DNA of 44,133 nucleotides, from positions 1 to 44,133 of the forward strand of contig MHOK01000009.1 in NCBI GenBank assembly GCA_001820055.1, given 5' to 3'. The notes under the pieces are model-generated. The model was given only the letters and a program-made list of their open reading frames with translations. It searched no databases and had not been told where the DNA came from. Origin of the DNA: Candidatus Spechtbacteria bacterium RIFCSPLOWO2_12_FULL_38_22. Lineage in GTDB: Bacteria > Patescibacteriota > Minisyncoccia > Spechtbacterales > 2-12-FULL-38-22. Positions 13,817 through 15,853 of the stretch are shown in pieces; positions within the stretch are counted from its first letter, which is position 1, and each line of letters begins with the position of its first letter. Both the position numbers and the translations under genes were made by a program.

Positions 13817-14263
13817 ATGGATAAATACATTTGGACTTCACATGCTCAATACAAGATGCGCTATTATAGAATGTCAGAAAGTCTGGTAAAAAGAGTGGTT
13901 CGTTACCCCACAAGGGTAGAGGAGGGGGTGATAGAAAACGCAGTTGCATGCATGAGACCTGCGCATTTAAATAGTACTTCGACCCGTTCGGTACCAGTAG
14001 GCGTTTTGACTGTGGGCTCCCAGCCTTCTCCGCCAGCTGGCGGATTCGGCGGGCAGGCGAAACAGGCCAAGCCTAAAAGATATTCTGAACTGTGGGTAAT
14101 GTATTTGTTGACTTCGTCGACGGGTAACAAAAAACAAACAGAAAGTAATAAACAAAAGCAAGTAAAGATTATCACTGCATGGAGATATCCTGGACTTAGT
14201 CCAAAACGCAATCCAGTACCAGCAAACATACTAGAGGAGGCCAAGAGAATAATTAGTATATAA
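13817..14263 (+). CDS. DUF4258-like protein with an in-frame GC-rich insertion
   Basis: The N-terminus (TSHAQYKMRYYRMSESLVKR, then YPTRVEEG) and the C-terminus (KIITAWRYPGLSPKRNPVP) match small proteins I recall in many Parcubacteria, related to DUF4258/BrnT-like folds. Normally the chain continues from 'VACMRP' to 'ELWVM' with only a few residues. Here about 36 residues rich in Ser, Pro and Gly intervene (roughly 13963-14073 in DNA), GC-rich and holding a perfect 16-bp palindrome. A second low-complexity insert (GNKKQTESNKQKQ) follows. The frame stays open, so the repeat was inserted without breaking the gene. Confidence 0.7.
   Translation: MDKYIWTSHAQYKMRYYRMSESLVKRVVRYPTRVEEGVIENAVACMRPAHLNSTSTRSVPVGVLTVGSQPSPPAGGFGGQAKQAKPKRYSELWVMYLLTSSTGNKKQTESNKQKQVKIITAWRYPGLSPKRNPVPANILEEAKRIISI
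14029..14044. repeat. Perfect 16-bp palindrome inside a coding region
   Basis: tccgccagctggcgga is its own reverse complement. It lies in the GC-rich segment inserted into the DUF4258-like gene, followed by a second GC-rich stretch (cggcgggcaggcg). It looks like one unit of a small dispersed palindromic repeat. Confidence 0.75.
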
Positions 14264-14272
14264 TTCTCAAGG

Positions 14273-14731
14273 TTAATTTATTTCTAAAATAATATATTCT
14301 TTAACTCCAGAAGGGAGTTTTATTTTTATTTTTTCTTTTATTTCATGTCCCATAAAAGCGTTGCCGATGGGGGAGTCGTAGGAAATTTTGCCACTACTGG
14401 GGTCGGAATTTTGGGCTGAAACAATAGTAAAGCCTTGTTCCTTTCCGTCGGAATTTTTTACTTTTAGAATTGAACCGACCTGCACCTTTCCACTGTTAGT
14501 TTTTTCAACTATTATCGCTTGTTTAATAATTATCGCTAGTTCTCTTATACGCATTTCTAATCTAGCCTGACGATCTTTTGCCTGATGGTAGGCATCGTTT
14601 TCGCCCAAATCTCCTTGTTCTATAGCTTCCTTTAAAAGTTTTGCAACAACGGCTCTCTCGTCTTTTTCAAGTTTTTCAAGTTCTTTCTTTAGCTCGTCGT
14701 ATTCTTTTTTTGTAAGTTTAATTTTATCCAT
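14273..14731 (-). CDS. greA: Transcription elongation factor GreA/GreB
   Basis: The 152-aa protein has the N-terminal antiparallel coiled coil (KKEYDELKKELEKLEKDE) with the acidic tip motif QGDLGENDAYHQAK that reaches the RNA polymerase active site, and a C-terminal FKBP-like domain with DSPIGNAFMGHEIKE. It stimulates RNA cleavage by backtracked polymerase. Length fits GreA (about 158). The minus-strand gene starts at ATG 14731; its upstream region contains the long inverted-repeat element at 14771-14881. Confidence 0.95.
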   Translation of the reverse strand: MDKIKLTKKEYDELKKELEKLEKDERAVVAKLLKEAIEQGDLGENDAYHQAKDRQARLEMRIRELAIIIKQAIIVEKTNSGKVQVGSILKVKNSDGKEQGFTIVSAQNSDPSSGKISYDSPIGNAFMGHEIKEKIKIKLPSGVKEYIILEIN

Positions 14732-14770
14732 ATAGGGATCAGGATTTAAGCTAGAGTTAATTTAGCGGAA

Positions 14771-14881
14771 TCAATTTTATAAAAAATAGTACAATTTATT
14801 CCACGCTGCCACTTCGTTCCCGCCTGCCTACGGTAGGCAGGCTTACGACGGAATAAATTGTACTATTTTTTATAAAATTGA
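14771..14881. repeat. 111-bp MITE-like element with 32-bp perfect inverted arms
   Basis: Bases 14771-14802 are the exact reverse complement of 14850-14881 (32 bp, no mismatch). The AT-rich arms enclose a 47-nt GC-rich centre with a second palindrome: gcctgccta (14822-14830), loop cgg, taggcaggc (14834-14842). No ORF lies inside. It sits between greA and the glutaredoxin gene. If transcribed it would form one long RNA hairpin. It could be a miniature mobile element, a structured RNA or a chromosomal landmark. Confidence 0.93.
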
Positions 14882-14989
14882 CCCGTCCTAGAGAGAAACT
14901 AAATTCTGGTTTGAATCCCGCTCCTTAAATACTAGCACATTCTCAAGGAAGTTAAAACTTGATTTACTATTCTGCGGGCTTGACTAGCA

Positions 14990-14998
14990 TGGTATAAT
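14990..14998 (+). promoter_or_regulatory. Extended -10 promoter of the glutaredoxin gene
   Basis: TGgTATAAT, a full extended -10 consensus, ends 30 nt before the ATG at 15028. A second TATAAT follows at 15006-15011, closer to the gene. Confidence 0.55.
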
Positions 14999-15027
14999 AA
15001 GAAAGTATAATTATTAACATTTTAATT

Positions 15028-15264
15028 ATGACTAACGTATTAATCTATTCAACGTCAACGTGTCATTATTGTCATATGGCTAAGGAGTTTTTTAAAGAAA
15101 ATCACATAGAATATAGCGAAAAAGATGTTGGTACGGATATGGATGCAAGGCGCGAAATGATAGAAAAAACAGGTAGTTTAGGGGTACCCGTTATTCAAAT
15201 TGGGGAGGAGACTATTTTAGGATTTGACAAAAAATGGTTACAGGAAAAACTAGGAATTAAGTAA
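15028..15264 (+). CDS. Glutaredoxin-like (NrdH/Grx family) protein
   Basis: The 78-aa protein has the thioredoxin-fold layout: STSTCHYCHMAKEFF with a CxxC dithiol (C12 and C15), the cis-proline loop GVPVIQIG, and a final GFDKKWLQEKL helix. The length and the ending fit NrdH/glutaredoxin-3-like reductants. It reduces disulfides, perhaps of ribonucleotide reductase or peroxide-detoxifying enzymes. The downstream Ni-superoxide dismutase suggests an oxidative-stress neighbourhood. Confidence 0.92.
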   Translation: MTNVLIYSTSTCHYCHMAKEFFKENHIEYSEKDVGTDMDARREMIEKTGSLGVPVIQIGEETILGFDKKWLQEKLGIK

Positions 15265-15406: not shown

Positions 15407-15853
15407 ATGAAATTTTTAGGTAAGGTTATTGATGCAGGAAATGTATACGCGCATTGTGATTTAATGTGCGGGGTTTACGATCCTGCTCAGGCACGGATTG
15501 AAGCGCAATCTGTTTATAATGCGGTAAAACTATATCAGACAGCACTCAATGACGAGGCGTTTAAACAGCGCACAATTCTTATAAAGGAAGAACGAGCACA
15601 AATAGTTAAGCACCATTTGTGGGTTTTGTGGACGGATTATTTTAAAGAGGAGCATGCGAAAAAATTTAAAAACCTGCATGATTTATTTTGGCAAGCTACA
15701 AAAGCCGCTGGGGATATAAAAAAATCCGTAGAGCTGGCGGATGCGCAGAAATTAATTGATTTGATAGACGAAATTGGTTATATTTTTGAACAAACTAAAG
15801 AAGGATATAATTACAGCGCAGTGAAAAAGAATTTAGAAATTCAAACTAAATAA
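15407..15853 (+). CDS. sodN: Nickel-containing superoxide dismutase
   Basis: The 148-aa precursor has a 15-residue leader followed by H16-C17-D-L-M-C21-GVY, the nickel hook of Ni-SOD in which His1, Cys2 and Cys6 of the mature chain bind Ni, then the conserved DPAQARIEA. The usual Pro in HCDLPCGVY is Met here; all metal ligands are kept. The rest is the four-helix bundle, with the KEERAQIVKHHLWVLWTDYF region conserved in the family. It converts superoxide to peroxide and oxygen in the cytoplasm. The maturation protease gene follows 26 bp later. Confidence 0.96.
   Translation: MKFLGKVIDAGNVYAHCDLMCGVYDPAQARIEAQSVYNAVKLYQTALNDEAFKQRTILIKEERAQIVKHHLWVLWTDYFKEEHAKKFKNLHDLFWQATKAAGDIKKSVELADAQKLIDLIDEIGYIFEQTKEGYNYSAVKKNLEIQTK

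What the first reader, a model, noticed from the sequence alone, without database searches (positions are those of the whole stretch)
14771..14881. MITE-like element with 32-bp perfect inverted arms and an inner hairpin
Arms 14771-14802 and 14850-14881 match perfectly; the 47-nt centre holds a further 9-bp stem with a 3-nt loop. The arms are AT-rich and the centre GC-rich, so it is a composite: perhaps a GC-rich palindromic repeat inside a second AT-rich inverted unit. It carries no ORF and sits in the greA/glutaredoxin gap. It is too long for an ordinary terminator and has no T-run of the usual form.
Basis: seen in the sequence. Interest (0 to 1): 0.65.

Follow-up and report, generated by a model that had tools for sequence, protein, structure and literature searches.

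The report
Nested mobile hairpin repeat, 22 copies
This is one of about 22 copies of a small, non-coding hairpin repeat scattered through a tiny bacterial genome, usually planted right behind the end of a gene; this copy carries a smaller palindrome inside it and sits inside the remains of a third repeat, like Russian dolls.

Summary
In detail: two perfect 32-bp arms and an inner 9-bp/3-nt hairpin, far beyond chance. It is not a single-copy spacer. A covariance model finds 21 copies in the host's 623-kb assembly, and DNA search adds one longer copy (155-nt core). A sister genus has two more longer copies; no other class genome sampled has it. The window copy is a three-level nest: a 19-bp GC palindrome, itself present in nine other class genomes, inside a hairpin unit (14780-14872), inside the outer ends of a different repeat family. 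Arms differ between copies but stay paired: 17 of 28 pairs show changes on both sides. The three long-core copies have unrelated, locus-specific arms. At all 17 other loci the element lies just behind a gene's stop codon, always in the same orientation towards it, never between divergent genes. The greA/glutaredoxin copy is the only exception. Orthologous gaps in relatives lack it. Best reading: a lineage-specific, non-autonomous REP/MITE/SPRITE-like hairpin repeat that settles at, and may act as, transcription terminators. Its mobilising enzyme is unknown; transcription, termination and transposition are untested. 'MITE' is only partly supported: no target-site duplication, fixed terminal repeat or parent transposon was found.

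The parts
14734..14779 (+). left remnant of a second repeat family ('C family', ...ATTTAGCGGAATCAATTTTA), host of the hairpin unit
   Evidence: 89% identical over 45 nt to C-family copy C19:11979-12179; family members at C20, C3, C19, C22, C6
14780..14872 (-). hairpin unit (A type): TAAAAAATAGTACAATTTATTCC arm / core / paired arm; core reads GTCGTAAG..GGCAGCGT on the - strand
   Evidence: 21 model hits in own genome, DNA hits, alignment A2
14771..14802 (+). left arm of the perfect 32-bp inverted repeat (9 outer nt from the C family, 23 nt from the A unit)
14803..14849 (-). 47-nt centre: conserved core GTCGTAAGC ... GGGAACGAAGTGGCAGCGT with an inserted GC palindrome
   Evidence: invariant/near-invariant columns of A2
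14823..14841 (.). 19-bp GC palindrome CCTGCCTACGGTAGGCAGG nested in the core (9-bp stem 14822-14830/14834-14842, loop CGG)
   Evidence: absent from copies at C20, C7, C12b, C16b; clean filled/empty pair in the C family; pattern present in 10 of 142 class genomes, reversed control 0
14850..14881 (+). right arm of the perfect 32-bp inverted repeat
14872..14928 (+). right remnant of the C family (AAAATTGACCCGTCCTAGAG...) followed by an inverted copy of its left end (14897-14928, - strand)
   Evidence: one search hits C9:14872-14903:+ and C9:14897-14928:-
14273..14731 (-). greA (context)
   Evidence: Pfam GreA_GreB and GreA_GreB_N
15028..15264 (+). glutaredoxin (context); followed by a nickel superoxide dismutase at 15407-15853
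   Evidence: Pfam Glutaredoxin, Sod_Ni

Best explanation
A lineage-specific, non-autonomous dispersed hairpin repeat: a conserved ~28-36 nt core (155 nt in long copies) clamped by AT-rich arms that stay complementary. Shown: about 22 dispersed copies; paired changes in the arms; placement just behind gene stops in a fixed orientation at 17 of 17 other loci; a smaller GC palindrome nested in the core; and, in the window, the unit sitting between the outer ends of another repeat family. Inferred: copies spread as hairpin DNA, probably by single-strand transposition or template switching, and preferentially settle in or build terminator hairpins at gene 3' ends, where they can serve as one- or two-way terminators or mRNA-end stabilisers. 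The window copy is a secondary landing inside another palindrome in the divergent greA/glutaredoxin gap, where it is most likely a tolerated passenger or insulator rather than a terminator of either gene.
For: 21 covariance-model hits in G000 and none in the six other genomes of the order searched, plus a long copy at C22:13261 and two in G002. Covariation: 95.4% of cells paired vs 84.3% in shuffles, 17 pairs changed on both sides vs 8.3, 0 of 500 shuffles as high. Long copies share 71-77% core identity but have unrelated arms with 22-28 paired positions. Flanks: the right-hand gene (core orientation) ends toward the element at 17 of 17 loci, core-to-stop distance 12-147 bp, arms often covering the stop codon. 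mraZ-mraW gap: element in G000; none in G001 (gap of about 10 nt); other palindromes in G002. G001's sodN-grx-greA gap has no copy. Clean insertion of a 20-bp GC palindrome in the C3 vs C19/C20 copies of the C family.
Against: No same-genus genome was available, so no close empty site or target-site duplication was seen. The relatives compared are different genera, so absence could also be loss. The seven clearly codirectional loci sharing one orientation are a small sample (two-sided p about 0.016). GT and AC mismatches in the arms are about equal (12 vs 10), so RNA-level selection is not supported. Long copies have short or no T-tracts (sequences). The window copy itself breaks the gene-end rule.
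Confidence: 0.66

Rival explanations
1. Classical MITE: a deletion derivative of a DDE insertion sequence with 23-32 bp terminal inverted repeats, moved by a transposase that binds those repeats, possibly with a TA duplication.
For: Size, AT-rich long inverted ends, no ORF, dispersed copies; about half of the copies (A type) share the arm TAAAAAATAGTACARTTTATTCC with terminal TA on both sides.
Against: Ends are not conserved between subgroups while the core is, the reverse of a MITE; no transposase flanked by these arms in the genome search; TA is inherent in the palindromic ends, so a duplication cannot be told apart.
Confidence: 0.15
2. REP mobilised by the genome's own RAYT (Y1) transposases.
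For: Three Y1_Tnp genes over the Pfam cut-off; location at gene 3' ends and insertion inside palindromes are described for REPs (PMC3733652).
Against: Each RAYT gene is flanked by its own different palindromes (ACTATAGGGTTGCC, CTATAGGGACTCC, TCCTGGGGGTT), none matching core, arms or GC palindrome. The unit is ~93 nt, longer than the 20-40 bp of REPs, and neighbours sit head-to-tail, rare in REPs.
Confidence: 0.1
3. Not mobile: ordinary bidirectional terminators whose loop sequences became similar by gene conversion or segmental duplication.
For: Ordinary hairpins in this genome can have long perfect stems (18 bp in the downstream flank of L006); placement at gene ends; several A-B pairs share ~45 bp of extra flank, i.e. 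larger duplications.
Against: Core conserved in unrelated loci and in another genus with different arms; presence/absence at orthologous mraZ-mraW; window copy lies upstream of both neighbours.
Confidence: 0.09

Closest known systems
[quoted passage not shown] PMC3049150)
   Same: AT-rich, dispersed (30 copies there), A/T-tract ends, long stem, found close to gene 3' ends and between convergent genes; clusters with other repeats that insert into one another
   Different: Different host and sequence. Here the arms vary by copy with paired changes, a core and a GC palindrome sit in the loop, and orientation to the neighbouring gene is fixed in the loci seen.
REP elements of the GTAG/CGTC super-families and their insertion inside palindromes (PMC3733652)
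   Same: Hairpin repeats mainly between codirectional and convergent genes; alternative complementary stem residues; REP dimers reported inside longer palindromes in Anabaena variabilis and Halothiobacillus neapolitanus
   Different: This unit is about 75-138 nt with 22-32 bp arms, not 20-40 bp; no GTAG end; CGTC occurs in the core, not as an unpaired end; no linked RAYT.
Bacterial MITEs (RUP, NEMIS/Correia, ERIC and others; PMC10969869, PMC3733652)
   Same: 70-300 bp, no ORF, long inverted ends, intergenic, nested insertions known
   Different: Terminal repeats not conserved across copies; no target-site duplication or parent element found.
BIMEs (mosaic arrays of palindromic units)
   Same: Composite arrays of A and B units at five loci
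   Different: A and B units are in the same orientation (head-to-tail), with no known transposase.

Membership tests
MITE | Multiple dispersed non-coding copies | tested here: met
   21 model hits + 1 long copy
MITE | Family-wide conserved terminal inverted repeats | tested here: not met
   Arms differ between A, B, C10, C21, C13, C22 and G002 copies while staying paired
MITE | Target-site duplication | tested here: inconclusive
   No consistent flanking duplication; terminal TA is inherent in the palindrome; no close empty site
MITE | Autonomous parent or transposase with the same ends | tested here: not met
   No pair of arm hits brackets a gene in the own genome; assembly 94% complete
REP (GTAG/CGTC) | 20-40 bp palindrome with GTAG or CGTC at one end | tested here: not met
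   Unit about 75-138 nt; CGTC only inside the core
REP (GTAG/CGTC) | Link to a RAYT gene flanked by the same repeat | tested here: not met
   Three RAYTs flanked by other palindromes
REP (GTAG/CGTC) | Extragenic, mainly codirectional or convergent gaps | tested here: met
   17 of 17 other loci behind a gene stop; window copy is the exception
Intrinsic terminator / SPRITE-like | Hairpin right behind a gene end with a T-tract | tested here: inconclusive
   Position met at other loci; A and B arms end in T4-T7, some others have T3 or none
Intrinsic terminator / SPRITE-like | Transcripts end there | not testable with these tools
   No RNA data
Known structured RNA (Rfam) | Match to a covariance model | tested here: not met
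   No match at gathering score in the window, nothing credible for the long copies

The most novel reading that the evidence does not exclude
The conserved core is a mobile loop cassette that inserts into terminator hairpins (or copies one flank into an inverted arm on arrival), so each insertion acquires its own locus-specific stem while the host keeps a working terminator; units then stack inside each other.
Probability: 0.25. Interest if true: 0.7.

Novelty: new variant of a known kind. Interest (0 to 1): 0.45.

Why it matters
Repeats that keep a conserved core but wear a different, nearly perfectly paired stem at each locus, and sit behind gene stops in one orientation, point to a way of spreading that targets or builds terminator hairpins. 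That would let a parasitic repeat persist even in one of the smallest bacterial genomes without damaging genes. It also makes a concrete test possible: compare terminators with and without the core in sister strains.

Tried and rejected
Rfam: nothing at gathering score in the window, and nothing credible for the long copies. Phage records: no match. GTDB R220 and IMG/VR pattern scans: nine and one hits, all chance matches without arms or core. RNA-level selection via GT vs AC mismatch asymmetry: 12 vs 10, no signal. tRNA genes behind the T-arm-like C-family flanks: none called in the loci tested. RAYT ownership: flanking palindromes differ. mfd-dprA synteny for an empty site: G001 is not syntenic there. 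Papers on Patescibacteria palindromic repeats: no description of this family found in the held library.

Full report
OBSERVATION. The two arms at 14771-14802 and 14850-14881 are 32 nt and fully complementary, with 47 nt between them. The window strand folds at -60.4 kcal/mol against -22.2 +/- 3.2 for shuffles. The longest perfect inverted repeat in 60 Markov versions of the window was 15 bp. The centre contains GCCTGCCTA-CGG-TAGGCAGGC at 14822-14842. The coordinates given are right.

COPIES. A DNA search of the host's 623-kb, 24-contig assembly returned hits at many dispersed places. Units were extracted and paired, aligned (A2, 17 sequences) and turned into covariance model R1. R1 finds 21 copies in the host genome and none in the other six genomes of the order. 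The copies lie on contigs C1, C5 (seven), C7, C9, C10, C12 (two), C13, C16 (three), C19 (two), C20 and C21. A longer version with a 155-nt core lies at C22:13261, and two more are in genome G002, a different genus of the same family. None was found in the other 382 class genomes sampled, and pattern scans of GTDB R220 and IMG/VR gave only chance hits. The family is lineage-specific at this sampling.

ANATOMY. In the orientation GTCGTAAG to GGCAGCGT (minus strand in the window) each unit is: arm, GTCGTAAGC, optional GC palindrome, GGGAACGAAGTGGCAGCGT (A) or GGGAATGAGCGTAGCGAATGGCAGCGT (B), paired arm. A arms read TAAAAAATAGTACARTTTATTCC; B arms AAAAGAGTTTGTATAATTTATTTC; others differ further. 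A and B units often stand head-to-tail. The arms vary but remain paired: 95.4% of cells form standard pairs against 84.3% in shuffles, 17 of 28 pairs show changes on both sides, and no shuffle of 500 reaches these values; slid controls are at 43-55%. Related sequences can inflate the shuffle test, but the slid controls and the size of the effect make pairing clear. GT and AC mismatches are about equally common (12 vs 10), so the constraint looks like DNA hairpin or arm-to-arm copying rather than RNA pairing.

LOCUS-SPECIFIC ARMS. The three long copies share 71-77% core identity, yet their arms are unrelated: AAAGGATTTCTGGTA..., ATAGTTTGGATTTATACT..., GGCGGGGATAATTATGC..., each pairing with its own partner over 22-28 positions. 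Two of these arms contain the stop codon of the neighbouring gene (gatB in C22, mfd in G002 C34). The core has therefore met, or made, a different palindrome each time.

NESTING. Level 1: the GC palindrome. Copies lacking it have GTAAGC|GGGAA, copies having it have GTAAG-CCTGCCTACCGTAGGCAGG-CGGGAA, and others have a 35-46 nt longer version. In a different repeat family a 20-bp palindrome of the same kind is cleanly inserted: GGCACGAG|GAG in C19 versus GGCACGAG-CCTGCCTGCCGGTAGGCAGG-GAG in C3. The 19-bp pattern occurs in 10 of 142 class genomes, up to nine times per genome, with the reversed control at zero, in unrelated contexts. Level 2: the A unit, 14780-14872. Level 3: its flanks 14734-14779 and 14873-14903 belong to the 'C family' (members on C19, C20, C3, C22 and C6). 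The C family's own centre is missing here, so the A unit stands in its place. Whether by insertion plus deletion or by exchange is unknown. The window's 32-bp arm is 23 bp of A unit plus 9 bp of C family.

POSITION. Flanking genes were read at all loci. At all 17 other loci (15 in G000, 2 in G002) the gene on the right in core orientation is on the minus strand, so the element sits behind its stop codon, 12-147 bp from core to stop, with arms often overlapping the stop. Seven loci are convergent gene pairs, for which orientation says nothing; seven are clearly codirectional and all have the same orientation (two-sided p about 0.016, my calculation). None is divergent. The window copy is the only exception, lying between divergent greA and glutaredoxin (identities by Pfam). 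The background share of divergent gaps in this genome was not computed.

RELATIVES. The mraZ-mraW gap holds a unit in G000, about 10 nt in G001, and other palindromes in G002. G001 keeps the order sodN-glutaredoxin-greA with a gap that has no copy (no R1 hit in G001). These are different genera, so the comparison shows non-conservation, not a precise empty site.

MECHANISM. Shown: multiplicity, paired variation, placement, nesting. Inferred: spread as a DNA hairpin with a taste for palindromes and gene ends. A and B arms carry A-tract/T-tract ends, so such units can plausibly stop transcription from both sides, but this is untested. Three RAYT transposase genes exist, each flanked by its own different palindromes, so they are candidates only by analogy. 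For the window copy a possible extended -10 (TGGTATAAT, about 14990-15005) lies between the element and glutaredoxin, read by eye and not called by the scan, so the element need not interfere with that gene.

COMPARISON. The closest published relatives are the pneumococcal SPRITE (terminator-like, near gene 3' ends, repeats inserting into one another; PMC3049150) and REPs lodged in longer palindromes (PMC3733652). It fails tested defining features of MITEs (conserved ends, parent element) and of REPs (size, tag, RAYT link), so it is not filed as a member of either, though it behaves like both. No description of this family was found in the held papers. Kind: new variant of a known kind.

Noticed in passing
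L045:2025-2756, L046:1881-2618, L047:2396-3121 (G000 C4, C23, C5): Three RAYT-like Y1 transposase genes, each flanked by its own palindrome family; in L045 and L046 a copy of that palindrome also lies inside the transposase reading frame (encoding ...TIGLPGNPIVGRD..., ...TIGTPGVPIVDTR...).
   Followed up: partly
L040, L041, L042, L073, L074 (G000 C19:11979, C20:5511, C3:8380, C19:29237, C22:44721): A second repeat family ('C family'): outer ends TTTAGCGGA...CCCGCC, arms that vary between copies yet stay complementary, conserved core AGGCACGAGGAGCGA...ATCGTGAGCGACGAG; flanked by T-arm-like GGTTTGAATCC sequence, in L074 by what look like real tRNA 3' ends.
   Followed up: partly
G000 C5:78340-78440, C12 after 18968, C19 after 30315: Three A-B composites share a ~45-bp tail that reads as the start of a truncated gene, (M)IQKVE(N/S)IM(L/F)GVE(T/A)D-stop, resembling the N-terminus of a VOC/glyoxalase-type protein cut by the element.
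   Followed up: no
window 13817-14263: ORF carries an in-frame GC palindrome region (14017-14056, ...QPSPPAGGFGGQAKQ...); the G002 homologue (L094:1356-1730, - strand) is shorter there, like the protein-coding palindromes of Rickettsia.
   Followed up: partly
L119, mraZ-mraW gap of G002: The orthologous gap carries other nested palindromes (CCTGCCTGC...GCAGGCAGG and two more stems) instead of this family.
   Followed up: no
G000:C22:13261-13423; G002:C36:14542-14699; G002:C34:5545-5703: Long-core versions (150-156 nt core; one folds at z = -5.7 with its arms) could be an ancestral structured RNA or full-length element from which the short units derive by internal deletion.
   Followed up: partly
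G000:C5:43444-43537 (L114): The neighbouring peptidase gene appears to read into a lone A-type arm that supplies its stop codon.
   Followed up: no
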